From: Pseudomonadota bacterium
Lineage (GTDB): Bacteria; Tectomicrobia; Entotheonellia; Entotheonellales; Entotheonellaceae
DNA length: 64,000 nucleotides
Assembly: GCA_005777235.1 (NCBI GenBank)
Contig: SXND01000083.1
Coordinates: 16,304-80,303 of the forward strand
Direction: 5' to 3'
Shown: positions 3,469 through 57,447 of the stretch, piece after piece
Layout of the letters: each line of letters begins with the position of its first letter
Position numbering within the stretch: the stretch's first letter is position 1
Notes under the pieces: generated by a model
Databases searched by the model: none
Seen by the model: only the letters and a program-made list of their open reading frames with translations
What the model was told of the DNA's origin: nothing
Position numbers and translations under genes: made by a program

Positions 3469-3600
3469 CTAGTGCCTCAACCGAGCGCATGTGCGACGTC
3501 TCCTGGGAGCGCCACGCTCCAGCGTGGCTTTGGGAGCCGGGCTAGAGCCCGGCGATCCCAGGGGGCCGCACCTGGCACAACAGCTCGGTGAAGGCACTAG
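3469..3600. mobile_element. 132-bp MITE-like element, copy A
   Basis: The element has imperfect terminal inverted repeats: CTAGTGCCTCAACCGAGC on the left, and on the right the reverse complement of CTAGTGCCTTCACCGAGC. Inside are palindromic arms around GCCACGCTCCAGCGTGGC and a GCCGGGC/GCCCGGC pair. A second copy of exactly 132 bp and roughly 92% identity (by eye) lies at 8253-8384. Each end is CTAG, and the TAG on the minus strand at 3599-3597 is the stop codon of hyuA. It encodes nothing, so any mobility would depend on a transposase elsewhere. Confidence 0.75.
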
Positions 3601-5579
3601 GCGCTCGCAAGGCGTAACACAAGATTGTGCTGCGGATCGACGTGCACCACAGCGGTGGCCGGTACAACCGTCGTGGCACTGTATTCCGTAATGAGGGCCG
3701 GGCCCGGAACCCGGTACCCAGGCGACAAACGCTGCCGCGCATACACGGGGGCCTGCCGCCAGGCGCCCTCGACGTACATCCGCAGCGTGTCCACCTGCGC
3801 TGCCTGCGGATCGGCGCCCTGCGTCTGGGCGGATGGCATATGATAGGCCGCGCCCGAACCGCCGACCACCCGCATGCGGACGTTCACCACCTGCGTTGGG
3901 CGGCTACTATCGGCATAGCCGTAGCGCCGCTCATGACGCTCGTGGAAGTCGTCAATATACCGTGGCGTGTACGGCACCTGCAGTTCAAACGATTGCCCCA
4001 CGTAGCACATGTCCAGCAGACGGCTGATCTGCACATCCTGCGGTGCCACCCCCTCATCCCGCATGGTTTGGAGTCCACGCGTCTCCAGTTCACGAAAGGC
4101 CTGTGTCGCCCGCTCGGTGGGAAACTCGGCAGATGGCACCAGGACCGTCTGGGCATACTCCTGCACATAGTCGGTAATCAGCATGCCAAAGGCCGACAAA
4201 ATCCCCGGATGGGCTGGGACGAGCACCGTCGGGATCGATAAACGGCGTGCCAGGTCTGCCGCGTGCATACTGCCAGCCCCGCCAAAGGCTACCAGGGCAA
4301 ACTCCCGCGGGTCGTGACCACGCTCGACAGAAATGACGCGGATGGCGCCTTCCATGTTGGCATTTACCACTTCTAAAATCCCTTCACAGGTGGCCTCGGG
4401 CGTCAGGCGCAGCTGGCGGGCAAAGTCCTCCACCGCCTCCTGCGTGCGGGCCACGTCCAGGCGCATCTCGCCGCCCAGGAACCACTCAGGATGGAGACGT
4501 CCGAGGTAGAGGTTGGCATCTGTCACGGTCATGCCGGTGCCTGTGCCATAGCATGCCGGTCCAGGGTCGGCCCCGGCGCTCTGCGGCCCAACGCGCAAGG
4601 CCCCGCCAGCGTCCAGATAGGCCAGCGAGCCACCCCCGGCGCCGACGGTATGGATGTCCAGCACCGGCACTTTGACCGGGCAGCCCGCGACAATGGTCTC
4701 GCTGGTGGTGCGCAGCTGCTCGTCACACAGCGCCACATCCGTGGACGTGCCTCCCATATCGAAGGTGATTGCCCGCTTGTAGCCCGCGGCACAGGCGACG
4801 TGAAACGCCCCGACCACGCCACCGGCGGGGCCGGAGAGCACCGTGTGCACGGCTTCCTGATGCGCCCGGGCTGCCGACATGACGCCGCCATTGGAACGCA
4901 TGACGCTCAAACGCGCCCCACGCAGTTCGGTGGCGAGCGTCGCCAGATAGCGCTGCATGATGGGACGCAAGTAGGCGTTGACCACCGTGGTGCTGCAACG
5001 TTCGTATTCGCGGAATTCCGGCAGAATCTGGTGGGAAGCGGAGATGGGGATACCCAACTGCGTCGCAGCGTCCAGCAGCATGATTTCGTGTTGCGGATTG
5101 GCATAGGCGTGCAGTAAGCAAATCGCCAGCGATTGCGCCCCGGAGCGCCGGACACGGGCCAGCACCCGCTCGATCTCCGCCATGCTCAGGGGCGTGAGCA
5201 CCTCGCCGTTGTACGCCAGGCGTTCCACCACGCCAAAGCGCCAGCGCGCTGGCACGAGCGGTGGCGGTTTCTGCACAAACGGGTCATACAGATGCGGACG
5301 TGTCTGACGGCCAATCTCCAAAATATCCTCAAAACCGTGGGTCGTAATGAGCGCGGTGGGTGCCCCTTTGCGTTCGAGTAAGGCGTTGGTGGCCACGGTG
5401 GAGCCATGCACGACCTCCGCGCCGGCGAGGTCGGACTGCAGATGCCGCAAGCCCTGCAGCACGGCTCGTGCCGGGTTGTCGGGCGTGGAGAGGACTTTGT
5501 GAATGACCAGCCTATCGCCATCCATGCGCATGAAATCGCTAAACGTGCCGCCGGTATCGACCCCGATTTTGATGGCCAT
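3597..5579 (-). CDS. hyuA: Hydantoinase A / 5-oxoprolinase alpha-type subunit
   Basis: This HyuA-type subunit (about 660 residues) pairs with the HyuB downstream. The ASKHA-type ATPase phosphate loop is MAIKIGVDTGGTFSDF at the start. It is followed by VVHGSTVATNALLERKG, GPAGGVVGA, FDMGGTSTDVAL, the DIHTVGAGGGS block, and GHDPREFALVAFGGAG. The start is placed at MAIKIGVD (5579); the 24 upstream residues in the track look non-native. The stop codon is the TAG inside the terminal CTAG of the MITE copy A, so the native 3' end may have been that CTAG. It diverges from the enoyl-CoA hydratase at 5769. Confidence 0.88.
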   Translation of the reverse strand: MAIKIGVDTGGTFSDFMRMDGDRLVIHKVLSTPDNPARAVLQGLRHLQSDLAGAEVVHGSTVATNALLERKGAPTALITTHGFEDILEIGRQTRPHLYDPFVQKPPPLVPARWRFGVVERLAYNGEVLTPLSMAEIERVLARVRRSGAQSLAICLLHAYANPQHEIMLLDAATQLGIPISASHQILPEFREYERCSTTVVNAYLRPIMQRYLATLATELRGARLSVMRSNGGVMSAARAHQEAVHTVLSGPAGGVVGAFHVACAAGYKRAITFDMGGTSTDVALCDEQLRTTSETIVAGCPVKVPVLDIHTVGAGGGSLAYLDAGGALRVGPQSAGADPGPACYGTGTGMTVTDANLYLGRLHPEWFLGGEMRLDVARTQEAVEDFARQLRLTPEATCEGILEVVNANMEGAIRVISVERGHDPREFALVAFGGAGSMHAADLARRLSIPTVLVPAHPGILSAFGMLITDYVQEYAQTVLVPSAEFPTERATQAFRELETRGLQTMRDEGVAPQDVQISRLLDMCYVGQSFELQVPYTPRYIDDFHERHERRYGYADSSRPTQVVNVRMRVVGGSGAAYHMPSAQTQGADPQAAQVDTLRMYVEGAWRQAPVYARQRLSPGYRVPGPALITEYSATTVVPATAVVHVDPQHNLVLRLASA

Positions 5580-5687
5580 AACTGGTATGTTGTCGCCTCC
5601 ATGGCGCGCGTGCCACACGACCGCAAGCCTCTGGCAATACCGGGCGCTCACCCGACGCTCCCAGCACTAATAAACCACCACGGCTGA

Positions 5688-5716
5688 TTGTAACACAGCA
5701 CCGCCTCGGCTAGAAT
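5688..5716 (+). promoter_or_regulatory. Candidate sigma70-type promoter for the enoyl-CoA hydratase
   Basis: TTGTAA (5688-5693) and TAGAAT (5711-5716) are separated by 17 bases in the divergent hyuA/hydratase intergenic region. They lie about 50 bases upstream of the hydratase start. Judged by eye only. Confidence 0.45.
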
Positions 5717-5768
5717 CTCTGCAAGCCAGTCTTGCCCATCCTTCCCTCACACCTGCGGAGGCCGTCAC

Positions 5769-6557
5769 ATGAGTACCACACTGGTGGAGTACCGTGTCGA
5801 ACACGGCATCGCCATCATGGCGTTGCATAATCCCCCCGCTAATACCTATACCTATGAGATGATGCGGGCGCTCGACGAGTGCATTTTGCAGGCGCGTTTC
5901 GATCCCACCGTCTCCGTCTTAGTGCTGCGTGGCCACGGCGAGCGCTTTTTTTCTGCCGGGGCGGATATCTCGATGCTACGTACCGTCGATCCCGCCTTCA
6001 AATATTACTTTTGCCTGCATGCCAACGAAACGTTGCTGCGTCTGGAACAGACGCCGAAACTGGTGATCGCGGCCCTCAATGGCGCCACGGTGGGCGGTGG
6101 TCTGGAGATTGCCATGGCCTGCGACTTACGTATTGCCAAACGCGATGCTGGCCGCATTGGTCTCCCCGAAGTGGCGTTAGGGGTGCTCCCAGGCACCGGC
6201 GGCACGCAGCGCTTGCCGCGTTTGGTCGGCCGCGCCCGCGCCATTGAGCTGATGGCCACGGGACGGGTGTTTGCCTTTGAAGAAGCGCTCGAGATTGGGC
6301 TCATTGACCACATTTTTGAGGCCGAGGATTTTTTTGAGGCGGTGCTGGACTACGCGCGGCAATTTACGCCACCCAATAAAGCCAGCAAGGCCGTGGGCCG
6401 GATCAAGCGGGCGGTGTGCTCGGGTCTGGAGTTGCCACTGCCCGCGGGTTTGGCACTCGAGCGTGAGTTCCAACAACAGTTGTTTGAGAGTGCCGATGCG
6501 GCGGAAGGTTTGGGGGCCTACGTCGAGAAACGCATGCCGCGCTTTCAAGGGGCATAA
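5769..6557 (+). CDS. Enoyl-CoA hydratase/isomerase
   Basis: This 262-residue crotonase has a complete hydratase active site: the oxyanion-hole segment FFSAGADISML, the glutamate in GGGLEIAMACD and the second glutamate in GLPEVALGVLPGTGGTQ. It should hydrate a 2-enoyl-CoA thioester in the cytoplasm. A GCGGAGG lies eight bases before the ATG. The diiron oxygenase-like gene follows 21 bases later, so the two probably form an operon that oxygenates and then hydrates a CoA thioester. The exact substrate is unknown. Confidence 0.9.
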   Translation: MSTTLVEYRVEHGIAIMALHNPPANTYTYEMMRALDECILQARFDPTVSVLVLRGHGERFFSAGADISMLRTVDPAFKYYFCLHANETLLRLEQTPKLVIAALNGATVGGGLEIAMACDLRIAKRDAGRIGLPEVALGVLPGTGGTQRLPRLVGRARAIELMATGRVFAFEEALEIGLIDHIFEAEDFFEAVLDYARQFTPPNKASKAVGRIKRAVCSGLELPLPAGLALEREFQQQLFESADAAEGLGAYVEKRMPRFQGA

Positions 6558-6578
6558 CGCGCGCCCGGGAGACACATC

Positions 6579-7691
6579 ATGAGTACACACCTTGCCACGT
6601 TTGATGACTGGGTGGCGGCGTTTCGGTCCTGGCAGGAGGATATTGGCCTCGACCGCCGCCATCTGGAGCGCTTCACTTTTGACACGAAGTATGGCGACCT
6701 GGCGAGTGACGAAATCGCCTTTGGGGATTTTACGGGAGCGCGGCGCTGGGAGTCGGTGCGGCAGATCCCGGACCAGCGCATGCGCGATGCCGTGCTCAAT
6801 TACATCGTCTATCAAGGCGATACCGAGTTCGCCTCGGTGGAGCAACAGCACCACCTGTACGACATCGCACCTAGCACGTACGACTTCCAATGTCTGACAC
6901 GGGTCATGGCGGAAGAAATGCGCCACGGCTATCAGATGTGCCATCTGCTGGTGACACATTTTGGCCATGCCGGGCGCTTAGAGGCGGACAAGCTCCTGCA
7001 GCGACGAGCCTATCATCACCAGCGGCTGCTGGGCTCCTTTAACGAGGACATCACCACTTGGCTGGACTTTTTTACCTTTACGCAATTTGTCGATCGTGAC
7101 GGCAAATACCAGCTGCGTATGCTCAGCCACTCGGCCTTTGCCCCGCTGGCGCGCAGTATGGGGCCGATGCTCAAGGAAGAGTCGTTCCATCTGGGGGTGG
7201 GCTACGATGGCCTCCGTCGTGTGATCCAGGCGGGGCGGGTGCCTATAGCGCTGATGCAAAAGTTTTTCAACAAATGGGTGCCAACGGCCTACGATTTATT
7301 TGGCTCTGATCACTCCGGCTCGGCGCATTGGGGGTATGTGTGGGGTTTGAAGGGACGCTATGATGAGGAGACCTGCGCCGCGCCAGCGGATCGCGAGCGG
7401 CTCAATGAAACAGCCCGTGAGCTGTACATGGTAGAAATTCGCGCCTTGACCGCACGTTTGAATCGCCTCATCCCCGCAGAGCAACCCAGGTTGTATCTGC
7501 CGGATATGACGTTCCATCGTCGGATTGGCGCCTATGCTGGGGAACCCTATAGTGTCACGGGTGAACGGTTACAGCCGGAGGCGTATGCCGCCTACTTGAC
7601 CGACGTCCTGCCACAGCCGGCGGATCTGGCCTGCCTAGCGGCCCTGACGCAAACCCCAGATTGGCTTACCCCCAAGCAAGCGATGGCCTGA
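6579..7691 (+). CDS. PaaA/PaaC-family diiron protein (phenylacetyl-CoA oxygenase-like)
   Basis: This 370-residue all-helical protein is of the phenylacetate-catabolism ferritin-like family. Candidate diiron ligands are spaced as expected: FASVEQQHH, AEEMRHGYQ, EDITTW and KEESFHLG. The family comprises aromatic acyl-CoA epoxidase subunits and relatives. BoxB (benzoyl-CoA epoxidase) is longer, about 470 residues, and PaaA works with PaaBCDE. No PaaB, PaaC, PaaD, reductase or ligase gene is seen here, so it either acts with distant partners or belongs to a one-component branch. GGGAGA precedes the ATG. The upstream hydratase suggests an epoxy- or enoyl-CoA intermediate. Confidence 0.75.
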   Translation: MSTHLATFDDWVAAFRSWQEDIGLDRRHLERFTFDTKYGDLASDEIAFGDFTGARRWESVRQIPDQRMRDAVLNYIVYQGDTEFASVEQQHHLYDIAPSTYDFQCLTRVMAEEMRHGYQMCHLLVTHFGHAGRLEADKLLQRRAYHHQRLLGSFNEDITTWLDFFTFTQFVDRDGKYQLRMLSHSAFAPLARSMGPMLKEESFHLGVGYDGLRRVIQAGRVPIALMQKFFNKWVPTAYDLFGSDHSGSAHWGYVWGLKGRYDEETCAAPADRERLNETARELYMVEIRALTARLNRLIPAEQPRLYLPDMTFHRRIGAYAGEPYSVTGERLQPEAYAAYLTDVLPQPADLACLAALTQTPDWLTPKQAMA

Positions 7692-7713
7692 TGCGTAACA
7701 AGAAGGTGCTCGT

Positions 7714-8169
7714 ATGCGGTATGTCTGTGCGCTCCTGGTGGTCATGCTCCTCAGTGAGTACAGTTGGAGTGCCCCCAAAGCAGGGCCAGAGTTACCCGCG
7801 CCGCCTGGGCAGGATGAGGTGGGCGAGGTTGCGCCACCACCGGGTATTGCCCCACTGCGCCCGGTGTTTGATTACCTGCGGTTTTATGAGTCGCAACCGG
7901 CGCGGGTGCTGCCCTATATCACCGAACACTTCCGCCATGGCCTGGAGCCGCGGGTCTGGGTAGACCAGATCCGCGCACTGCTGTCTGCCCAAGGTTACAC
8001 CCGGCTGTCGTGGCTGGTGTACCACCTAGAAGTGCACCCAACAGGCGGGTTGGTGCATGTGAAGACGCGGGCCCGCCTTGATGGCCAGGAACTCCTCCAG
8101 AAAGAGATTTTTGTGCTCGTGCGCACGCCCGAGGGGGAATGGCTGATTGATGATTGGCACCTCGAGTGA
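7714..8169 (+). CDS. Secreted small protein, NTF2/DUF4878-like by appearance
   Basis: The 151-residue product begins with a clear signal peptide (MRYVCALLVVMLL...SWSAP), followed by a proline-rich linker. A C-terminal alpha+beta domain ends RTPEGEWLIDDWHLE. That ending is typical of NTF2-like lipoprotein and exported domains, but no family can be named with certainty. It follows the diiron gene by 22 bases and may be co-transcribed. Confidence 0.6.
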   Translation: MRYVCALLVVMLLSEYSWSAPKAGPELPAPPGQDEVGEVAPPPGIAPLRPVFDYLRFYESQPARVLPYITEHFRHGLEPRVWVDQIRALLSAQGYTRLSWLVYHLEVHPTGGLVHVKTRARLDGQELLQKEIFVLVRTPEGEWLIDDWHLE

Positions 8170-8252
8170 GGGAGCCGCGGGCCATGGCCAGACCCTCGTA
8201 CAGACCACAGAGGACTCTGGCCATGCTCTCCTGACGAGAAACAGTTGGGCCT

Positions 8253-8384
8253 CTAGTGCCTCAACCGAGCGCCTGTGCGACGTCTCCTGGGAGCGCCACG
8301 CTCCAGCGTGGCTTTGGGAGCCGGGTGGGAGCCCGGCGATCCCACGGGGCAGCAACTAGCACAATAGCTCGGTGAAGGCACTAG
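8253..8384. mobile_element. 132-bp MITE-like element, copy B
   Basis: Same length, same CTAG ends and same terminal inverted repeats as the copy at 3469-3600. About ten substitutions separate them, clustered in the central loop and right third. Its right-hand CTAG supplies the TAG stop codon of the PspA gene on the minus strand (8383-8381). Confidence 0.75.
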
Positions 8385-9088
8385 GCCGTAATGCCAAGAC
8401 GGGCCTTCATGGCCTGCAACTGATCTTGGGTTTTCGAGATGGATGCTCCAGCCAGGGCTTTGTTAATCTCCGCATCAACCGACGTGTCCACCTGGCCGAC
8501 TTCGCCATAGGCTTGTGCCAGGGCTTCATCTTCCTCCACCTTCCGTTTCATGCGCTCCAACATGGCAATCGTGCTGGAGGAATCGACTTGCGCCAGGTGC
8601 TGGTTAATTTTCTTGGTGGATTCAGCCGTCTTGGCCCGCGCCCGTAGCGTCACCAGCTCATTTTCATACGTCGAGATGGCCGATTTGAGCTGCTGAACTT
8701 TGTCTTGCAGTTGTGAGGCCATGCGTTGTTGCTGTTCGGTATCCTGCGACAGTCTGGCCGCCCGTTGCGCCGCCAGTTCCTTCTGATTCAAGGCTTCAGT
8801 CGCCAGACGATCGGCCTGCGCTTGGTCAAGCTGACCCTCTTGAAAGCGTTGCAGGAGCAACACGGCCTTGCGCTCATACTCGTTGGCCTGGCGTTTGGCG
8901 TCGTCGGCTTCTTTACCCAAACGGATGGAGACGCCTTTGACTTCCGCCAAGCCGTTCATGGCGTTTTGCAGATCGCTTTTGAGATCACGGATGCCCTGTT
9001 CGGTGATCTTGATGGGATCTTCGAATTTGTCGACAATAGCATGGGCCTCGGCCTGCCCCACTTTGAACAGTCGTGTAAAAATACCCAT
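8381..9088 (-). CDS. pspA: PspA/IM30 family membrane-stress protein
   Basis: The 235-residue protein is predicted to be almost entirely coiled coil, the mark of PspA/Vipp1 proteins that polymerise on damaged inner membranes (ESCRT-III fold). The amphipathic N-terminal helix MGIFTRLFKVGQAEAHAIVDKFEDP and the downstream KSAISTYENELVTLRARAKTAES pattern fit the family. The start at 9088 has AGGAGG eight bases upstream; the track's longer version is rejected. The final TAG belongs to the MITE copy B. The ybjN-like gene lies 28 bases upstream, a common neighbour. Confidence 0.88.
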   Translation of the reverse strand: MGIFTRLFKVGQAEAHAIVDKFEDPIKITEQGIRDLKSDLQNAMNGLAEVKGVSIRLGKEADDAKRQANEYERKAVLLLQRFQEGQLDQAQADRLATEALNQKELAAQRAARLSQDTEQQQRMASQLQDKVQQLKSAISTYENELVTLRARAKTAESTKKINQHLAQVDSSSTIAMLERMKRKVEEDEALAQAYGEVGQVDTSVDAEINKALAGASISKTQDQLQAMKARLGITA

Positions 9089-43401: not shown

Positions 43402-44418
43402 ATGGCATACAGCCTACGCTGGCTCGCCCGTACCGCCCGCTGGCTGGACCGCCAACCCCTGCCACTGGTGGTGGTTCTGGGCCTGACGCTCGGTCTGGGG
43501 CTGGGCCTGCCCGGCTTTTTCGCCCTGCACGCCCCAGCCTGGGCCCTGGCCTGGCTCTTGCTGTTCGGCCTCCTGTGGCGTCTCGGGCAGCGCGCTGAGC
43601 CGGTCTTTCCAGAGACACCGCCGGCCCGCACCACGCCCCGGCGCGTCCGTGACGGGCGGCTGGTGATGCTCGATCTCCCCGGTGGCAGCTTTTTGATGGG
43701 CTCACCGGCCAGCGATGACATGGCGTATGACGACGAGAGACCACAGCACCGGGTGACGCTGGCGGGATTGCGCATTGCGGTGACGCCGGTGACGGCTGGC
43801 CTGTACCACGCGGTGATGCAAGGGCAGGCGCCAACAGCAGGCCGTGAGCAGGTACCCGTGGTCAACGTGAGCTGGGAAGACGCCCTGCGGTTCTGTAACC
43901 GACTCTCTGAGCGGGAGGGCTATCGCCCCTGTTACCGTCAGCGCTTTGGACGCTGGCGCTGTGACTGGCGTGCCGATGGCTACCGTTTGCCCACCGAAGC
44001 GGAGTGGGAATACGCCTGCCGCGCCGGGACTATCACACGCTATGCTTTCGGGGATAACCCGGCCCGGCTGGAGCGCTATGCCTGGTATGGCGAGGGTTTC
44101 TCAAGGGGCGCCCATGAGGTGGCCCAGAAATTGCCCAATGCCTGGGGGCTGTACGACATGCACGGCAATGTCTGGGAATGGTGCTGGGACCTCTACGGAG
44201 CCTATGCAGCCAGAGCAGTCACAAATTCGCGCGGTCCGTCAAAATATAGATCTAAAAGTGCCTGGAGGCGGGTGATTCGTGGCGGCTCGTTCTTCAATCC
44301 GCCCGTGCACCTGCGCTCCGCGTACCGGGGCTTCGTCCCGCCCGTGGACCTGAGCGACGACCTCGGGTTCCGGTGTGTCCGTGTCCCGCCCCAGCATTTT
44401 GAGCCCTTGTCCCCTTGA
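43402..44418 (+). CDS. DGR target protein 1: membrane-anchored FGE/C-type-lectin-fold protein
   Basis: The 338-residue protein has two N-terminal hydrophobic segments (LPLVVVLGLTLGLGLGLPGF; WALAWLLLFGLLW) and then a formylglycine-generating-enzyme (SUMF1/EgtB) domain from about residue 90. Domain motifs are MLDLPGGSFLMGSPASDD, VPVVNVSWEDALRFCNRLSE, YRLPTEAEWEYACRAG and NAWGLYDMHGNVWEWCWD. The last 50 residues are the variable repeat VR1. The catalytic cysteines of true FGE (GGSxxCxxxxC) are absent (GGSFFNPPVHL), so it is probably a binding scaffold. GGAGG precedes the ATG. Confidence 0.9.
   Translation: MAYSLRWLARTARWLDRQPLPLVVVLGLTLGLGLGLPGFFALHAPAWALAWLLLFGLLWRLGQRAEPVFPETPPARTTPRRVRDGRLVMLDLPGGSFLMGSPASDDMAYDDERPQHRVTLAGLRIAVTPVTAGLYHAVMQGQAPTAGREQVPVVNVSWEDALRFCNRLSEREGYRPCYRQRFGRWRCDWRADGYRLPTEAEWEYACRAGTITRYAFGDNPARLERYAWYGEGFSRGAHEVAQKLPNAWGLYDMHGNVWEWCWDLYGAYAARAVTNSRGPSKYRSKSAWRRVIRGGSFFNPPVHLRSAYRGFVPPVDLSDDLGFRCVRVPPQHFEPLSP
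44259..44397 (+). repeat. DGR variable repeat VR1
   Basis: This 139-bp near-copy of the template repeat at 45720-45858 aligns without gaps. In the 31-codon core all 15 differences fall on adenines of the template: AAC to TTC twice, GAG to GTG twice, CAA to CCG, and others. The ends (GCCTGGAGGCGGGTGATTCG and CTCGGGTTCCGGTGTGTCCG) are identical. It encodes the C-terminus of target protein 1. Confidence 0.92.
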
Positions 44419-44431
44419 TTCTTTTGCCTTT

Positions 44432-44455
44432 ACCGGCGCGTTAGCGCCGGTTTTT
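44432..44455 (+). terminator. Rho-independent terminator after target gene 1
   Basis: ACCGGCGC-GTTA-GCGCCGGT is followed by a T-run, 14 bases past the stop codon. In DGRs a hairpin shortly after the VR can also help retrohoming, so it may have two roles. Confidence 0.8.
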
Positions 44456-44468
44456 GTTTGTCTGCACA

Positions 44469-44515
44469 CAGACAATATGTGCACAATAAACAATCATTTG
44501 TACGCATATTGTCTG
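44469..44515. repeat. AT-rich cruciform downstream of VR1
   Basis: CAGACAATATG and CATATTGTCTG are perfect 11-base complements around a 25-base loop that itself contains a partial dyad (GTGCACAAT / ATTTGTACGC). It lies about 70 bases past VR1 and stands out from the GC-rich surroundings. Confidence 0.55.
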
Positions 44516-44542
44516 TTTGTGTCCATACATCCGCCCGCCCGG

Positions 44543-45532
44543 TCACGGAAACACCAGTAGCCCTTGATATGACTTGATGGTGCGGGACAGTGCCTCCTCG
44601 CCTCGGCTCGCGGCACTCTGCAGCCGCTGCTGCAAACGGCGCCGTAGTTTGCGGCTCGGGCTGATCCCCGCTCGGCTGATGCGATAGCCCAGAAAGACGG
44701 CTGGGGTGGTCGCAGGCTCCACCGCCAGACGTTTGGGATTGAGGGAGAGCCCGCGTGCCTCAGCCAGCCAGGTCGTCAGGGCTGCACGGGCTTCCAGCAA
44801 CGGCGCTTTGGTATCGGCAAACAGCACGAAATCATCCATATAGCGCTGGTAGCCAGGGATGTGCAACTGACGTTTGACAAAGTGATCCAGGCCATCCAGA
44901 AAAAAGTTCCCGCACCACTGGCTGAACCATGAGCCCAGAGGCAGCCCATACCCGGCAGTTGGACAACGCTCGCCCAGTGTCGTCGCGGCCAGGGGGCTAC
45001 GGTACACCTCGTCGCTAGAGGTAATGATGGTGCGCACCAGGGCCAGCGTGTCTGCATCCACCACACGTGTGGGGAACAAAACCAGCAGGCGGGCGTGCTG
45101 AATGCTCAAAAAGTAGGCGTGAATGTCGAGGTGGAGACGCCAGGCATAGCGGCGCATACAGGCCAGGAAATACAGCACGGCCCGATGGGGACCGCGTTGG
45201 TGGCCAGCGGCAAACGATTGTTCCAGGTAGCGACGCTCAAACACCGGGCCGATTTCGTTGAGTACGGCGTGGTGCAACACCCGGTCGCGCACGGCTGGGG
45301 CCGCAATCAGGCGGGTTTTCGGATCGGCAATGCTGTGCAGCCGCCAGGGCGATGGCCGGTAGCGCTGCGCCAGCAACTCCTGGTGCAGCGCCAACAGGTG
45401 GTAATCGCAGTCGATCTCAAAGCGCGCCACGCTCGGATGACGGCGTTTGCCACGGCGACACGCCCGCCAGGCGCGCCAGAGTGCTTCCTGGCTGGCCAGG
45501 CGTTGGTAACTGCCGGCAGCAAGGGTGTACAT
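44543..45532 (-). CDS. DGR-type reverse transcriptase
   Basis: This 329-residue reverse transcriptase has no maturase or integrase domain. RT blocks include HSIADPKTRLIAAPAVRDRVLHHAV, WRLHLDIHAYFLSI, GLPLGSWFSQWCGNFFLDGLDHFVK and the catalytic RYMDDFVLFAD, followed by FLGYRISRAG. LGxxxSQ in place of the QG motif of other RTs is the signature of diversity-generating retroelement enzymes. The start at 45532 has GGAGA upstream. The template repeat lies about 190 bases upstream on the same strand. Confidence 0.92.
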   Translation of the reverse strand: MYTLAAGSYQRLASQEALWRAWRACRRGKRRHPSVARFEIDCDYHLLALHQELLAQRYRPSPWRLHSIADPKTRLIAAPAVRDRVLHHAVLNEIGPVFERRYLEQSFAAGHQRGPHRAVLYFLACMRRYAWRLHLDIHAYFLSIQHARLLVLFPTRVVDADTLALVRTIITSSDEVYRSPLAATTLGERCPTAGYGLPLGSWFSQWCGNFFLDGLDHFVKRQLHIPGYQRYMDDFVLFADTKAPLLEARAALTTWLAEARGLSLNPKRLAVEPATTPAVFLGYRISRAGISPSRKLRRRLQQRLQSAASRGEEALSRTIKSYQGLLVFP

Positions 45533-45719
45533 GGAGTCTCCAGCCATGTCGGGCTGAAGCCCGACCTACCGGGAAGCCCGACAACGCGACTGGCACCGGA
45601 CTTACGCAAGGGATATTGAGATGGCCCACCCGGACAGTCGCAGCGCTACTGGAACAGGCGGACCAGGAGAGAGGGCCGCTGGCCCTCGGCAGGCGCTGCA
45701 TGGCGTGTGCAAGAACGGC

Positions 45720-45858
45720 ATGTTGGGGCGGGACACGGACACACCGGAACCCGAGGTTGTCGTTCTGGTCCTCGGGTTGGTCGTTGTCCCGGTTCGCGGA
45801 GCGCAGGTTCTCGGGCGGATTGTTGAACGAGCCGCCACGAATCACCCGCCTCCAGGCA
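45720..45858 (-). ncRNA. DGR template repeat (TR)
   Basis: Read on the minus strand, the 139-bp TR is rich in AAC and GAC codons in the frame of the targets (FNNPPENLRSANRDN, then DQPEDQNDNLGFR). It lies between avd and the RT gene, the usual DGR position, and would be transcribed as the template RNA for adenine-mutagenic reverse transcription. It is not itself in a genuine protein. Confidence 0.9.
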
Positions 45859-45966
45859 TTACGCGCCTGCTTGAGGCGCAGTATGGCACATCCCGCCGCC
45901 AGCGCCAAGGGTGTGGTCCAGGGCCATGGAGTGTTCGGTTGTTGGCCTGCGTTACCCTGGGTGTGG

Positions 45967-46329
45967 TCAGGACGTTGGTTCCGCGCGGGCGGCGAGATGC
46001 TTGTGCCAGCCGCCAAGCTGGCGTCCAATGTCGTCGGCCAGGCGCAAGGCGTATTGCCCCTGGCGGTCGTCGAGGAAGGTCGTCTCCACCGCCAGGCGCA
46101 GCCGCAGGCGCAGGCGGATGAGCAGGAGATCTGCTTCCGCCAGAGCCGTGTCACGGTCGATGTTTTTTAACGCCAACGTCACCGTATCGAGGCGGTGTAA
46201 GATCTCGGCGGCAAGAGAACAGGCCAGCACATCGTGGGGCTGCGTGCGAGTCTTGTTGAGCAGCCACACGCAGAGATCCCAGGTCACGGTAAAAATTGGC
46301 GCCTGCAGGTCGCGTTGCGTCGGGCTCAT
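45967..46329 (-). CDS. avd: Avd-like four-helix accessory protein of the DGR
   Basis: The 120-residue, basic, all-helical protein (DLCVWLLNKTRTQPHDVLACSLAAEILHRLDTV...ADDIGRQLGGWHKHL) has the pattern of the Avd/S23-like four-helix bundle that binds the DGR reverse transcriptase and template RNA. It starts in an ATGA overlap with the upstream helix-turn-helix gene and ends about 110 bases before the TR. The assignment rests on fold pattern and position. Confidence 0.8.
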   Translation of the reverse strand: MSPTQRDLQAPIFTVTWDLCVWLLNKTRTQPHDVLACSLAAEILHRLDTVTLALKNIDRDTALAEADLLLIRLRLRLRLAVETTFLDDRQGQYALRLADDIGRQLGGWHKHLAARAEPTS

Positions 46330-46889
46330 GCGCTGCCCACACGGCGTTCACTGCGCCGCAGCAGCCCGGCAAAGGCGGGCATCACGTCCTGCTCCAGCGC
46401 GGCCAGCAGCGGCGTGGCCTGCTCCGCCGTGGCACAGAGCAGCAGTTCCATGGCGGCGAGGCTGGCCGCATCACGGGCGGCGCGATAGGACACGGTCTTT
46501 TCCTGACGGTCATAGCGATAACAGCCCACGGCCAGGTGATCGAGGCACTGACGCATGTGCGCCGTGGCTTTGTCCAACGCGCCGCCGCCCGCGGCAAGTT
46601 GCTGGTAGATGGACATGGCGAGCTGCACGGCTTTGAGATCGCGCAGGGTGTAGCGCCGCTCTTTACCTGGTAGCAGAGCCTCTTCGATGACGGCCTTGAA
46701 ACGCGCCTGTTGCTGGCTGGCGCGCTGCTGGATGTCAGCGTCAATGTGCAGGTCATCGCGCTCGATGACCCAGCGGCCACCGACTTTTTGGGCTGGCAGA
46801 CGCTTGTGTTCGATCATGTACAACACCTGACGGCGGGTTTTCCCCAGCAGAGCCGTCGCTTGTTCGAGTGAAAGTTGCATAATAGACAT
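46326..46889 (-). CDS. DGR-linked helix-turn-helix (excisionase-like) protein
   Basis: The 187-residue protein has an N-terminal MerR/excisionase-type helix-turn-helix (LSLEQATALLGKTRRQVLYMIEHKRLPAQKVGGRWVIERDDL). A helical C-terminal region of about 110 residues follows (YTLRDLKAVQLAMSIYQQLA...RYDRQEKTVSYRAARDAASLAAMELLL). The stop codon overlaps the avd start. It may regulate the cassette or act with Avd. Confidence 0.75.
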   Translation of the reverse strand: MSIMQLSLEQATALLGKTRRQVLYMIEHKRLPAQKVGGRWVIERDDLHIDADIQQRASQQQARFKAVIEEALLPGKERRYTLRDLKAVQLAMSIYQQLAAGGGALDKATAHMRQCLDHLAVGCYRYDRQEKTVSYRAARDAASLAAMELLLCATAEQATPLLAALEQDVMPAFAGLLRRSERRVGSA

Positions 46890-47257
46890 TCTCGGGCATA
46901 GAAGATGGGCTCATGCAGGAGCTTTCTCGGCCACGCTGCCCCCTCCTGGGAGCTGGCACCTCCCCCCAGCGGGGGGAGGCAGGAGGGGGGACACGACGGG
47001 GGGTGAGGAGACGGGGAACGCCTGGCCGCCCTGTGCCCCCCTCCCAACTTCCCCCCGCTGGGGGGAGGAGTGTCGGCAAGCATCACGTTTCTTATGCCCG
47101 ATAATGTCTAATGTGCAGCACCAATGGACACAAGGATAGACAAAAGGACAAAGAGACAGGCTTTGTAGCACAAAAGGACAGACAAATACACAAATAAACA
47201 ATTTGTACGGTCCGCGCTGCGCGCAGGAGAAAGCAAAGGATCAATAAAATCAATGGG
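46890..47257. other. Intergenic region between VR2 and the DGR cassette
   Basis: Contains two GC-rich palindromic blocks (CCTCCCCCCAGCGGGGGGAGG near 46958 and its near-complement near 47053). Next to VR2 is an AT-rich purine run with repeated GGACA and ACAAA words. A small hairpin (CCTGCGC-GCA-GCGCGG on the minus strand) follows VR2 by about 45 bases. No gene is seen. Confidence 0.5.
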
Positions 47258-50200
47258 TCAAGGCTGGGGCGGGACACGGACACACCGGAACCCGAGGAGG
47301 ACGTGCTGGAACTCGGGAGGGTCGTTGGCCCGGAACGCGGAGCGCAGGTTCACGGGCGGATTGAAGAACGAGCCGCCACGAATCACCCGACAAGAACGAT
47401 CCTTGAAGGCATAGCACGTCCCATCAGCAGGCCCCAAGGGATCAACCCACACCCCGGCACCATAGTCGTTATACCAGTCCCGCGTCCACTCCCAGACATT
47501 GCCGTGCATATCATACAGCCCGAGAGGGTTCGGCTGCTTCTGCCGCACCGCTTGCGCTCCTTTGGCGTTCTCCGCAAACCAGGCATAGTCGCCTAGGCGC
47601 GCAGCATCCGCGCCAAACGACCACGGGAAGCAACTACCCGCACGCGCCGCGTACTCCCACTGTGCTTCGGTCGGCAGATCACCGCCGAGTTGTTGACACA
47701 CCGCTCGCGCTTGTGCCCAGTCCACGTTGACTGCCGGCAGGTTCCCCCTCTGCCCCGCCTGCTGCTGCGTTGTTTCCGTCTGCGCCATCTGCAAGGCGGA
47801 GAGCACCACGATACGCGGCTTCTGCTCAGGCAGTATTTTATCATCATACGCCATAGCGTCTTCACCCTTGTCGATGGTCCCCATGGTGAACGTCCCAGGG
47901 CACACCTGCACCCACACCAGACCGTCCGGGCCGGGCTGCTGCTGCGGTCCGCCAGTGAGCCACACCTGGCCCTGCTGACGCTGCACCTGTAGGCGGGGCG
48001 ACACGGCCTCGACGCCCTTCTTCCCAGCAAAGGCCAGCTCCCGCGCCAGCCCGGCGACATCCGCGCTGGTGGCCACGGCCCACGGCCCGGTGTGGGTGGC
48101 CAGGCGGGCGGCGGCAGGCTCGGCCTCAGCGGCATCCGGCAGCAGCACCAGGATCTGCGTGTGGCGATTGAGCGTTGGACTGGGCCCGAGCCAGGCGTCC
48201 AGGTGCTGGGCCCAGTCCTCACCCAGCCACACCTGATCAGCGCTGCCCTTATCCAGCAGGTGCATGGCCAGTTGCCGCACAGCAGGTTGCTCCTCGGCTC
48301 CCGGCATGGCCAGGATCACCAGCGCACGCAGCGGCCAGTCCGCGCTACAGGCGCGGATGGGTTGCGCCAGACGCCCGGCGCGCAGCACCACACTACGGCT
48401 GCCTGGCAGGCTGATAGCATTGAACTCCTGGTGCCAGGTCCAGGTCACCGGGAGCTGCGCCCCGGCCGGCACCGCGGGCAGCCAGGTAATCTGGGAGTCG
48501 CGGGCGCTACCCAGCGTCACCTGATACGTGCCACGCGCTGTCTGTTGGCGCTGTTGCACGGTCTGCGCCAGCATGGCCGGGTGGGTGCACGGTGTGTCGG
48601 GGCACAGGAAACGCGGTGGGTCGGGGGCCAGCCAGCGCTGCACCGCGGCGGCGCCGGCGCTCAGAGCCAGGGCGAGCAAGATGGTACAGGCCAGCACCAG
48701 GCGCGGCGCGTCTTTTAACGGCGGGGGCGTAGGCTCGGGGTAGAGTGGGGTGGCAAAACCAAGCTGGCGCAGACGGTGCTGTGTCACCGGGGTAAGATCG
48801 CGCCAGTGCCAGGGGAGGTAGATCATGGGCGGGGTCTGCCGGCCAGCCTGTTGCCGCTGCGCCTCATCGGCGTACTCAGCCAGGCGTTGCTGGACGTCCG
48901 TGCGCAGTGTCTCGTCAGCCAGATGCGCCAGTTGCTGCGCGGCGCCCTCGGGGTCGCGATACAGCCGCAGCACGGCCAGCTCCATCTGCCAGCGCTGGTG
49001 CGCCAGGGAGTGCTCCCAGGGCAGGAGCGGGTTTTCCTGCGCCCGCAGGCGCTGCGCCGCCTCCAGGTAACGCTGCTGCCACCAGTCGAGGGCCTGCTGC
49101 GCCAGACTCTGCGGCTGTAGCTTCCCCCCATCGTCGAGCGGGTCGCGGTGCAGCAGCCAGGTGATCAGGCGTTGACGCTCCCCTGGCTGCTGCGCCAGGT
49201 CCAACACCTGATCCACGGCCCATGGGCTGACGTCGAGGTTGAGGGCCACGCGCAGACTCTGCGTACTGGCGGTGTCGGCCTGCGCCCCCCCGAGCGCCAC
49301 GGCGGCAGCCCAGAGCCGCGCGGCGCCATACAGCCCCGGGTCAGGCGCGCTGTCTTCCGGTGCCGGTCGCACCACGCCACCCAGCCAGGCGGGCAAGTCC
49401 TCCAGGGTAATGGTGTCCAGGCCATAGGGCTCCAGCACTGCGGCCAGGCGTCCCCCAGGCGTGCCACAATCCACAAAGCACAGCCGTGGCCAGCGTTGCA
49501 GGCTGCGCAAGAGGCGCTCGGTGTCCCGCCGGGAGCGCTGCAGTGTCAGGCGCTGCTCCAGCCCCACACCATCAGTGCAAATCACCACCAGGGCCTGGCG
49601 CCCGGCGCCCTCTTCGTGCCCTGGCTGGTAGCCCGGCTGCTCTGGCCAGTCCAGGCGGTCCGGCACATCGGTGAACAATCCCTGACGCGCTTGCAGACCT
49701 GCAGCCGCCAGGGTAGTCAGGAGTTGCTGTACGGCGGTGCGCGGCGTGGAGCGTTGTAGCTGGCGATCGAGCCAGAACCAGACGTCGCGTTCGTACACGG
49801 TAGGTTGGAAGTGCAAGTGTACAAAACCACCGGCACGGGCCGTGGCGTTGACCGTCTGCGGCAGATCGAGCCGATGGGTAGTCTCCTCCGCGACGAATTG
49901 CTCGATCTGCCACACCAGTTGGCGCCGTTCGCGTGCCGCCAGCAAAGCACTGTCGTCCCGCGCCGGTGGCGGTAGTGGCTGCCAGCGGGCCCCGACATAG
50001 CGCCGTGGTGGCGCGACAATGGGGCGATAGTCCCGGCGATAGCGCCACCAGAGCACCACGGCCAGGGTCAGACCAGCCAGCCCGAGCAGCGCCAGTGCCA
50101 GGGCCCCAAGGCGCCGGGGTACGTGGATGGGCTGGGGTTTGACCTCTGCACGCCAGAACCACACCTGCTCTACTGGCGTGGTGGCGTCTGCCGTGGCGGT

Positions 50201-50665
50201 GAAACGATGCGGCACCGGGCCATCCGGCGTCCTGGGTAGCCCCATCTCGCTCATGCTGCGCGGCCAGAGTAGCACAGCGCCCAGCAGGAGCAGCGCCCAG
50301 CCCGCGCCGCGGCGTGGCGTGGGAGGGTCGGAGGGCGGGGCTAGCACGTCAGGCGCCGGGGGGACAGGCAGTGTCTGCTGGACGGCGTGTGTTGGGGTAG
50401 TTGACACGCTCTCGGCGGGCCAGTCGGCCTCGTGGTCCGGGCACCAGTCGGCGAACAGGGCCGCAAAGACGTCGTGCTGGGCTGGGGTTTTCACGAGCAG
50501 GGCACTGAGCAGGTGGTGCAGATCCTGGCGTTGCAGGTGTGGCTGCCGGGCAAACAGGTGCTGCAGGCGGGCGAGCTCGCCTGGACCCACCGGCACGCCG
50601 CTCAGGCGTAGGGCGGCCAGAAAGTCGCTGAGTTCGGCCAGTTGATGTGATGTGGTGTTGGGCAT
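47258..50665 (-). CDS. DGR target protein 2: CoxE-like/membrane protein with C-terminal FGE fold
   Basis: This 1135-residue protein begins with a CoxE-like (MoxR-partner) helical domain (LSDFLAALRLSGVPVGPGELARLQHLF...SALLVKTPAQHDVFAALFADW). Two membrane segments follow (GWALLLLGAVLLWP; ALALALLGLAGLTLAVVLWW), then a central region with a vWA-like VVICTDGVG but no clear MIDAS. A third membrane segment follows (LVLACTILLALALSAG). An FGE domain takes up about the last 210 residues (QVCPGTFTMGTIDKGEDAMAYDD, LPTEAQWEYAARAG, LGLYDMHGNVWEWTRDW) and ends in VR2. The start at 50665 has GGGGAGG ahead. It is third in the TIR-MoxR operon. Confidence 0.88.
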   Translation of the reverse strand: MPNTTSHQLAELSDFLAALRLSGVPVGPGELARLQHLFARQPHLQRQDLHHLLSALLVKTPAQHDVFAALFADWCPDHEADWPAESVSTTPTHAVQQTLPVPPAPDVLAPPSDPPTPRRGAGWALLLLGAVLLWPRSMSEMGLPRTPDGPVPHRFTATADATTPVEQVWFWRAEVKPQPIHVPRRLGALALALLGLAGLTLAVVLWWRYRRDYRPIVAPPRRYVGARWQPLPPPARDDSALLAARERRQLVWQIEQFVAEETTHRLDLPQTVNATARAGGFVHLHFQPTVYERDVWFWLDRQLQRSTPRTAVQQLLTTLAAAGLQARQGLFTDVPDRLDWPEQPGYQPGHEEGAGRQALVVICTDGVGLEQRLTLQRSRRDTERLLRSLQRWPRLCFVDCGTPGGRLAAVLEPYGLDTITLEDLPAWLGGVVRPAPEDSAPDPGLYGAARLWAAAVALGGAQADTASTQSLRVALNLDVSPWAVDQVLDLAQQPGERQRLITWLLHRDPLDDGGKLQPQSLAQQALDWWQQRYLEAAQRLRAQENPLLPWEHSLAHQRWQMELAVLRLYRDPEGAAQQLAHLADETLRTDVQQRLAEYADEAQRQQAGRQTPPMIYLPWHWRDLTPVTQHRLRQLGFATPLYPEPTPPPLKDAPRLVLACTILLALALSAGAAAVQRWLAPDPPRFLCPDTPCTHPAMLAQTVQQRQQTARGTYQVTLGSARDSQITWLPAVPAGAQLPVTWTWHQEFNAISLPGSRSVVLRAGRLAQPIRACSADWPLRALVILAMPGAEEQPAVRQLAMHLLDKGSADQVWLGEDWAQHLDAWLGPSPTLNRHTQILVLLPDAAEAEPAAARLATHTGPWAVATSADVAGLARELAFAGKKGVEAVSPRLQVQRQQGQVWLTGGPQQQPGPDGLVWVQVCPGTFTMGTIDKGEDAMAYDDKILPEQKPRIVVLSALQMAQTETTQQQAGQRGNLPAVNVDWAQARAVCQQLGGDLPTEAQWEYAARAGSCFPWSFGADAARLGDYAWFAENAKGAQAVRQKQPNPLGLYDMHGNVWEWTRDWYNDYGAGVWVDPLGPADGTCYAFKDRSCRVIRGGSFFNPPVNLRSAFRANDPPEFQHVLLGFRCVRVPPQP
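47264..47389 (-). repeat. DGR variable repeat VR2
   Basis: A gapless 126-bp copy of the template repeat at the very 3' end of target gene 2, ending just before its TGA. In the 31-codon core 13 of 14 differences fall on TR adenines; the exception is a G to T in GAC to TTC. The invariant ends CGGGTGATTCGTGGCGGC and CTCGGGTTCCGGTGTGTCCG match TR and VR1. Confidence 0.92.
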
Positions 50666-50683
50666 GCCCCTCCCCTTGCCTTG

Positions 50684-50746
50684 CCCTGGGAGCGCCACGC
50701 TCCAGCGTGGCTTCCGGCGCCGGGCTGGAGCGTGGCGCCCCCAGGG
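50684..50746. repeat. REP-like extragenic palindrome
   Basis: CCCTGGGAGCGCCACGCTCC and the complementary right half (GGAGCGTGGCGCCCCCAGGG) form a 63-base near-perfect fold. It sits between the MoxR gene and target gene 2 and shares its arms with the MITE-like elements at 3.5 and 8.3 kb. It may tune expression between the two genes. Confidence 0.6.
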
Positions 50747-56560: not shown

Positions 56561-56602
56561 TTGTGGCTAGATATCCATGTCGTAAGTCCTACGCCAGTGC
56601 CC

Positions 56603-56664
56603 CCCTGGGACCGCCGGGCTCCAGCCCGGCTCCGGAAGCCACGCTGGAGCGTGGCGGTCCCAGG
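56603..56664. repeat. REP-like extragenic palindrome
   Basis: CCCTGGGACCGCCGGGCTCC and its right half (GCGTGGCGGTCCCAGG) fold together. The inner GAAGCCACGCTGGAGCGTGG arm is shared with the palindromes at 50.7 kb and the MITE copies. It lies between convergent genes, where it may end both transcripts. Confidence 0.55.
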
Positions 56665-56706
56665 AAACACCCTGGAGAACTGGCAGCGTATTGATGAAAC
56701 AGACAT

Positions 56707-57447
56707 CTAGCTCCCCGATGCTTGGCCGTCTTGCACGTCGACATCCGTGATCCGAAACGTCAACGTATACGGCGTCAGGCCAGACTCGGTGAGCAGCGTC
56801 AAAATGAAGCGAAATTCTCGGCCCTTGTAGGCCTGCCCCAGCGTTGGAGTGTTGCCACTCGTGGGCAGGAGAGGTTGCGGAGCGGTCGAGGTCGCCACTT
56901 CCCCGCCGGTGGAGCGCGACACGGTCAACGGGTTGAGCGACACACGCTCTACTGGCCGTCCAGAAGGCTGATACGCCGGATCAGGGGGCAGTCGTATATC
57001 CGGCTGCCCGGCATACGGCGAGAGCCTCGGCTGGCGTGCGGTGCGGAAGCCACCGGGGCGGACGCGGCCCTGAAACGCTTCGCTGGGCACAATGCGGGTG
57101 CCTTCCGCCGGCCATTCCGGTGTGCTAAACCAACCCGTGGCACTGGCATCAAGCACCGGACGGGTCTGGCCTAGCGGATCAATATAGCGCGTGCGCGCCC
57201 AGACAATGGTCACCGGTTGGGTGCCGATATTCATGACCGAGAGCTGCAAGACGCCGACTTCACTCGTGGGGGTGACACGCATGCGCACCCGAGCATCCTC
57301 GATGCCGTCGCTGCTGCCCCCTGCGGTAGGCAGCATGGTGTACTGATAACGAAAGTGATAGGCTGTGCCACAGCCACACAGGCTCACGCTGAGGAGGACA
57401 CCCCAGAGCCAGCGGAGACGCAAGACACAACCTGGAGCGAGCAGCAT
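56707..57447 (-). CDS. Predicted lipoprotein of unknown function
   Basis: The 246-residue product has a lipoprotein signal peptide (LRWLWGVLLSVSLCGCGTAYHF; acylated Cys likely in LCGC). A beta-rich domain follows (VRMRVTPTSEVGVLQLSVMNIGTQPVTIVWARTRYIDPLGQTRPV) and a proline-rich stretch. The beginning resembles surface-exposed lipoproteins of FixG/Ig-like fold, but the family is not recognised. Confidence 0.6.
   Translation of the reverse strand: MLLAPGCVLRLRWLWGVLLSVSLCGCGTAYHFRYQYTMLPTAGGSSDGIEDARVRMRVTPTSEVGVLQLSVMNIGTQPVTIVWARTRYIDPLGQTRPVLDASATGWFSTPEWPAEGTRIVPSEAFQGRVRPGGFRTARQPRLSPYAGQPDIRLPPDPAYQPSGRPVERVSLNPLTVSRSTGGEVATSTAPQPLLPTSGNTPTLGQAYKGREFRFILTLLTESGLTPYTLTFRITDVDVQDGQASGS

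What the first reader, a model, noticed from the sequence alone, without database searches (positions are those of the whole stretch)
3469..8384. MITE-like elements inserted exactly on stop codons, keeping TAG
Both 132-bp copies begin and end with CTAG, and in each the terminal CTAG supplies the TAG stop of the neighbouring gene (hyuA, pspA; both ...GCC TAG). If CTAG is the duplicated target, as with IS5-type elements, insertion into a C-TAG stop codon duplicates the stop and leaves the protein unchanged. This would be a harmless way to enter gene-dense DNA.
Basis: partly seen in the sequence, partly recalled or inferred. Interest (0 to 1): 0.6.

Follow-up and report, generated by a model that had tools for sequence, protein, structure and literature searches.

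The report
CTAG-targeting MITEs; stop-codon hits are chance
Two small mobile DNA pieces sit exactly on the stop codons of two genes, as reported, but this genome carries over 50 such pieces and they land on stop codons only as often as their favourite target word (CTAG, which contains the stop TAG) occurs there among sites outside genes, so this is ordinary behaviour of a known kind of element.

Summary
In detail: two 132-bp elements (3469-3600, 8253-8384) begin and end with CTAG, and the CTAG at each right end is the TAG stop of hyuA and pspA. They belong to a family of at least 52 near-full-length copies in this 6-Mb genome. A sister family (B, 22 copies sampled) also has CTAG ends. Remnant transposases carrying the same terminal repeat are IS630-type, not IS5-type. 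Two in-genome paralogous empty sites show one tetramer where the filled site has two, so the tetramer is duplicated on insertion. Insertion into a C-TAG stop therefore leaves the protein unchanged; one host gene, a ThiS-like carrier, still ends in its required Gly-Gly.

There is no preference for stop codons: 16 of 71 extragenic elements (22.5%) sit on stops, against 93 of 466 (20.0%) element-free extragenic CTAG sites in the same DNA (p = 0.64). Neighbour-gene context also matches background. Copies inside genes are strongly depleted (3/74 against 478/944), and all three keep the frame open.

CTAG preference plus purging of gene-breaking insertions explains the pattern. Unexplained: about a fifth of ends read CTCG or CGAG, and one copy is flanked by GTAC on both sides.

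The parts
3469..3600 (+). family A MITE, copy 1 (132 bp, CTAG...CTAG)
   Evidence: direct reading; 52 near-full-length copies in the genome sample; RNA fold z = -8.4 on + and -8.9 on - strand
3597..3599 (-). TAG stop codon of hyuA, inside the right-hand CTAG of copy 1
3597..5579 (-). hyuA-like gene (660 aa), ends ...LVLRLASA*; orthologues in three genomes of the same family end within 0-2 codons
1844..3424 (-). hyuB-like gene, next in the presumed operon; the MITE lies in the hyuA-hyuB gap, which holds no MITE in G001 and G003
8253..8384 (+). family A MITE, copy 2 (132 bp, CTAG...CTAG)
8381..8383 (-). TAG stop codon of pspA, inside the right-hand CTAG of copy 2
8381..9088 (-). pspA-like gene (235 aa), ends ...RLGITA*; orthologues run 3-10 residues further
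56567..56710 (+). family B MITE (144 bp, CTAGATATCC...GACATCTAG) with the same hairpin core type; its right CTAG is the stop (56707-56709) of a 741-nt minus-strand gene
50685..50746 (+). solo copy of the shared hairpin core without either type of terminal repeat

Best explanation
The two elements are non-autonomous (MITE) members of an IS630-related family that inserts at CTAG-type sites and duplicates the target. CTAG contains TAG on both strands. When a target CTAG happens to be the last base of the final sense codon plus a TAG stop, both products of the duplication keep CTAG, so the gene still ends at the same codon and the 128 extra bases fall outside it. Insertions that break a reading frame are removed by selection. 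What survives is a near-random sample of CTAG sites outside genes, about one fifth of which are stop codons. Shown here: family, target, tetramer duplication at two paralogous sites, no stop enrichment, depletion inside genes. Inferred: mobilisation in trans by an IS630-type transposase, and purging of harmful insertions as the cause of the depletion.
For: 52 A and 22 B elements in a 1.19-Mb sample of the genome; 31/52 A and 11/22 B have CTAG at both ends. Stop coincidence is 16/71 extragenic elements against 93/466 extragenic background CTAGs in the same sequence, p = 0.64; A alone 11/49, B alone 5/22; the result holds at stricter gene-calling thresholds (both families together p = 0.51 and 0.72). 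Neighbour-gene context tandem/divergent/convergent is 33/17/17 against 216/107/100 for background. Copies inside genes: 3/74 against 478/944 of background CTAGs, p = 2e-17, and no called gene ends inside an element out of frame. Paralogous empty sites: in an FGE-sulfatase gene (C21:6098) the two tandem paralogues have one tetramer (CTTG, TTAG) where the filled gene has CTCG...CTAG; at C266:49491 a repeated sequence has one tetramer (CCGG, CCGT). No direct repeat extends beyond the tetramer. Decayed IS630 transposase C-termini lie just inside an A-type end at C15:38912 and C84:6552 (tblastn to an IS630 transposase of the same genome, E = 1.9e-23 and 5e-14). Six IS630 copies in this genome are themselves bounded by C-TA...TA-G. 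Published: ISY100 transposase duplicates TA (PMC2170065), and that paper's reference list cites IS630 preference for TA in CTAG (Tenzen and Ohtsubo 1991).
Against: No true orthologous empty site: no close relative is held, and the family was not found in 59 other genomes or, apart from one lone chance-like hit, in the GTDB r220 contigs. No intact autonomous partner was found. About a fifth of the ends read CTCG or CGAG instead of CTAG, a state not shared by the closest copies and not predicted by simple duplication of CTAG. One copy (C153) is flanked by GTAC on both sides, which suits a 4-bp duplication better than the TA duplication usual for IS630. Gene calls come from a simple codon-usage caller.
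Confidence: 0.85

Rival explanations
1. The elements prefer stop codons, through a target-choice mechanism or positive selection for 3' ends (for example as useful 3' hairpins), beyond the CTAG preference.
For: Both window A copies and the window B copy sit on stops; the elements fold into very stable hairpins on both strands (z about -6 to -9), which could act on transcripts when placed after a stop.
Against: Stop fraction equals background (22.5% against 20.0%) and the context of neighbouring genes equals background. No terminator-like site was found around copy 1 and no Rfam match at E <= 1.
Confidence: 0.05
2. The element brings its own TAG: insertion truncates genes and the terminal CTAG supplies a new stop, so the stops are not the original ones.
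For: One of 16 cases is a cut gene: the Alpha-E gene at C20:18213 ends at profile position 101 of 294 and the remainder, with further stops, lies across the element.
Against: The ThiS-like protein at C32:4524 ends exactly at GG*; aminotransferase, DUF4198 and DUF5335 genes have complete domains up to the stop; HyuA orthologues end within 0-2 codons and PspA orthologues 3-10 residues further. No called gene ends inside an element in another frame, as random truncation would give in two of three cases. Empty paralogues hold one tetramer.
Confidence: 0.06
3. The elements are IS5- or IS701-type MITEs with a 4-bp CTAG duplication, not IS630 relatives.
For: A 4-bp CTAG or YTAA duplication is reported for MITEPsy1, tentatively IS5 (PMC3189936). 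The copy at C153 is flanked by GTAC/GTAC, which fits a 4-bp duplication without extra mutations.
Against: The only coding remnants found with the same terminal repeat are IS630 transposases. TA and CTAG duplication give identical products at CTAG sites, so most copies do not discriminate.
Confidence: 0.12

Closest known systems
IS630 family / Tc1-mariner elements and their MITEs (e.g. RUP of pneumococcus with IS630-Spn1)
   Same: Short, non-autonomous, inverted terminal repeats, insertion at TA within CTAG, remnant transposases of IS630 type with the same ends; RUP is likewise an IS630-related 107-bp element inserted at TA (PMC2229807).
   Different: No intact partner found; one copy suggests a 4-bp duplication (GTAC/GTAC); about a fifth of ends read CTCG or CGAG.
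MITEPsy1 of Pseudomonas syringae (tentatively IS5)
   Same: About 100-bp MITE with an 18-nt inverted repeat and a reported CTAG or YTAA duplication (PMC3189936).
   Different: MITEPsy1 is linked by its repeats to ISPsy2; the family here is linked to IS630 remnants. No stop-codon analysis was seen in the passages read there.
Rickettsia palindromic elements (RPE)
   Same: Short palindromic elements found in frame within genes (review PMC10969869); here 3 copies sit in frame in genes.
   Different: Here in-gene copies are the exception (3/74), the element is a CTAG-bounded MITE, and homology to RPEs was not tested.

Membership tests
MITE | Short (under about 300 bp), no transposase gene, multiple copies | tested here: met
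   132 bp, at least 52 near-full-length copies
MITE | Terminal inverted repeats | tested here: met
   CTAGTGCCTCAACCGAGC / CTAGTGCCTTCACCGAGC
MITE | Target duplication on insertion | tested here: met
   two paralogous empty sites with a single tetramer; orthologous sites not available
IS630-derived | Terminal repeat shared with an IS630 transposase gene | tested here: met
   decayed IS630 transposase C-termini adjoining A-type ends at C15:38912 and C84:6552; Pfam DDE_3 alone is below its cut-off, E = 0.054; no intact partner
IS630-derived | TA dinucleotide duplication | tested here: inconclusive
   TA and CTAG duplication are indistinguishable at CTAG; C153 (GTAC/GTAC) favours 4 bp, C52 (CTAG/CTAA) is compatible with TA
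IS5-type | Ends shared with an IS5 transposase gene | not tested
   no IS5-specific search was run; the remnants found with these ends are IS630-type

The most novel reading that the evidence does not exclude
Targeting a palindrome that contains a stop codon on both strands gives an element two built-in ways to spare genes: on a C-TAG stop the duplication restores the stop, and in the CTA-G frame the length variants of 130 or 133 bp add 42-43 codons without a stop. The target choice may itself be kept because it lowers the cost of insertion.
Probability: 0.1. Interest if true: 0.55.

Novelty: new member of a known kind. Interest (0 to 1): 0.28.

Why it matters
It shows with a matched background that an eye-catching pattern (mobile elements sitting on stop codons) follows from a CTAG target plus selection against gene disruption, so no special stop-codon targeting is needed. 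The geometric point, that any element duplicating CTAG automatically preserves a TAG stop, should hold for other CTAG-targeting elements and can be checked in genomes with sister strains.

Tried and rejected
Empty sites in relatives: no copies in 59 other genomes; the exact-match pattern scan of GTDB r220 contigs gave one lone hit, in a Planctomycetota contig without a MITE visible around it. Idea that CTCG/CGAG ends are inherited subfamily marks: rejected, since nearest copies never share the state (0 against 1.8 expected). Idea that a family-wide A:T to C:G mutation bias explains them: suggested by all substitutions but not borne out by singletons. Idea that CTCG is the true target and the element brings the TAG: contradicted at C32, where the protein must end at GG; the C20 case is a degenerate gene and does not decide. 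Covariation test of the hairpin: not done, because the 38-copy alignment mixed orientations. Promoter/terminator scan and Rfam: nothing. Literature searches found no paper on CTAG elements sparing stop codons; the 2024 MITE review does not contain the phrase 'stop codon'.

Full report
OBSERVATION. Two 132-bp elements lie at 3469-3600 and 8253-8384. Each begins and ends with CTAG, and the right-hand CTAG of each holds the TAG stop of a minus-strand gene: hyuA (...GCG AGC GCC TAG) and pspA (...ACG GCC TAG). A related element of a second family at 56567-56710 also has CTAG at both ends, and its right end is likewise the stop of a minus-strand gene.

THE FAMILY. In the genome to which the window belongs (6.03 Mb, 284 contigs) a profile search over a 1.19-Mb sample found 52 near-full-length copies of family A. 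Family B (ends CTAGATGTCC... / ...GACATCTAG) gave 22 copies in the same sample and uses either the same hairpin core or other hairpin cores. The core also occurs alone (50685-50746). The sample was chosen because it holds copies, so the background below is taken from the same stretches.

STOP-CODON TEST. Genes were called with a codon-usage model; 1022 genes, 81% coding. Of 74 elements, 16 have a terminal CTAG that is the stop of the gene reading into it, 3 lie inside an open gene and 55 are elsewhere outside genes. Of 944 CTAGs not in elements, 93 are stops, 478 lie in genes and 373 are elsewhere outside genes. Among extragenic sites the stop share is 16/71 (22.5%) for elements and 93/466 (20.0%) for background: odds ratio 1.17, p = 0.64. 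Stricter gene calls, each family alone, or only copies with CTAG at both ends give the same answer. Tandem, divergent and convergent settings match background. Insertions inside genes are strongly depleted (p = 2e-17). So the elements behave as a random draw from CTAG sites outside genes.

IS THE TARGET DUPLICATED? No repeat extends beyond the tetramer. True orthologous empty sites were not available. Two paralogous ones were found inside the genome. The A copy at C21:6098 sits in an FGE-sulfatase gene with two tandem paralogues: these read GAG-CTTG-ATGCC and GAG-TTAG-ACGCC where the filled gene reads GAT-CTCG-[element]-CTAG-ACGCC. The copy at C266:49491 sits in a repeated sequence whose two other copies have one tetramer (CCGG, CCGT) at that place. 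Whether the enzyme duplicates TA or all four bases cannot be told at CTAG; one copy flanked by GTAC on both sides favours four, and one with CTAG/CTAA suits TA.

ARE THE STOPS ORIGINAL? If the target was CTAG, an in-frame TAG must have been there before insertion. Independent signs agree: the ThiS-like protein at C32:4524 ends exactly in Gly-Gly and matches PF02597 to its last position; aminotransferase, DUF4198 and DUF5335 proteins have complete domains; HyuA orthologues from three genomes of the same family stop within 0-2 codons of the same place; PspA orthologues run 3-10 residues further. In G001 and G003 hyuA and hyuB are adjacent with no element between them. One of the 16 is a degenerate, cut gene (Alpha-E, C20:18213).

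IN-GENE COPIES. All three add a multiple of three bases (14 of 52 copies family-wide do) and are read through the CTA-G (leucine) frame without a stop: a TPR-containing gene (C149), the FGE-sulfatase gene (C21) and a polyketide-synthase-like gene (C43). This is what selection for tolerated insertions would leave.

WHAT KIND OF ELEMENT. The same terminal repeat adjoins decayed IS630 transposase C-termini at C15:38912 and C84:6552 (52% identity over 71 residues, E = 1.9e-23, and E = 5e-14). Other IS630 copies in the genome are bounded by C-TA...TA-G. IS630-family transposition into TA with TA duplication is established for ISY100 (PMC2170065), whose reference list cites IS630 preference for TA within CTAG. 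The IS5 suggestion is therefore less likely, though MITEPsy1, tentatively IS5, is reported to duplicate CTAG or YTAA (PMC3189936).

UNEXPLAINED. About a fifth of the ends read CTCG or CGAG. In family A the change nearly always faces inward (left CTCG, right CGAG; two exceptions), while in family B both ends read CTCG. The state does not follow interior subfamily and exceeds what singleton mutations would give.

VERDICT. Observation confirmed; mechanism of harmless insertion at a C-TAG stop supported; special association with stop codons rejected. Ordinary MITE behaviour with a neat geometric consequence.

Noticed in passing
window 43402-50698: A diversity-generating retroelement: reverse-transcriptase-like gene 44543-45547 (-), template repeat about 45720-45858, variable repeats at 44259-44397 (in a formylglycine-enzyme-like gene) and 47260-47389 (in a 1146-aa gene). 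All 16 TR-VR1 differences and 15 of 16 TR-VR2 differences are at template adenines. The RT was not tested against Pfam.
   Followed up: partly
ends of family A and B copies, e.g. C244:21790, C274:43328, C161:26831: Roughly a fifth of element ends read CTCG or CGAG instead of CTAG, mostly inward-facing in family A and direct in family B; not inherited by subfamily and unexplained.
   Followed up: partly
C149:13850, C21:6098, C43:60360: Three family A copies lie in frame inside otherwise open genes and encode similar peptides (LVPQ...GSSPAPAATL...GAPR); net length is a multiple of three in all.
   Followed up: partly
window 3502-3563, 8286-8347, 50685-50746, 56604-56665: One hairpin core (CCTGGGAGCG...CGCTCCCAGG) is shared by two MITE families with different ends and also occurs alone; family B also carries unrelated cores, as if the middle were exchangeable.
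   Followed up: partly
C235:7238, C37:474, C15:38911: IS630 copies abut family A ends and share their CTAG, suggesting that MITE ends serve as insertion targets for later elements.
   Followed up: no
C84:7850-8950: Two different CRISPR-like repeat arrays lie next to the decayed IS630 remnant.
   Followed up: no
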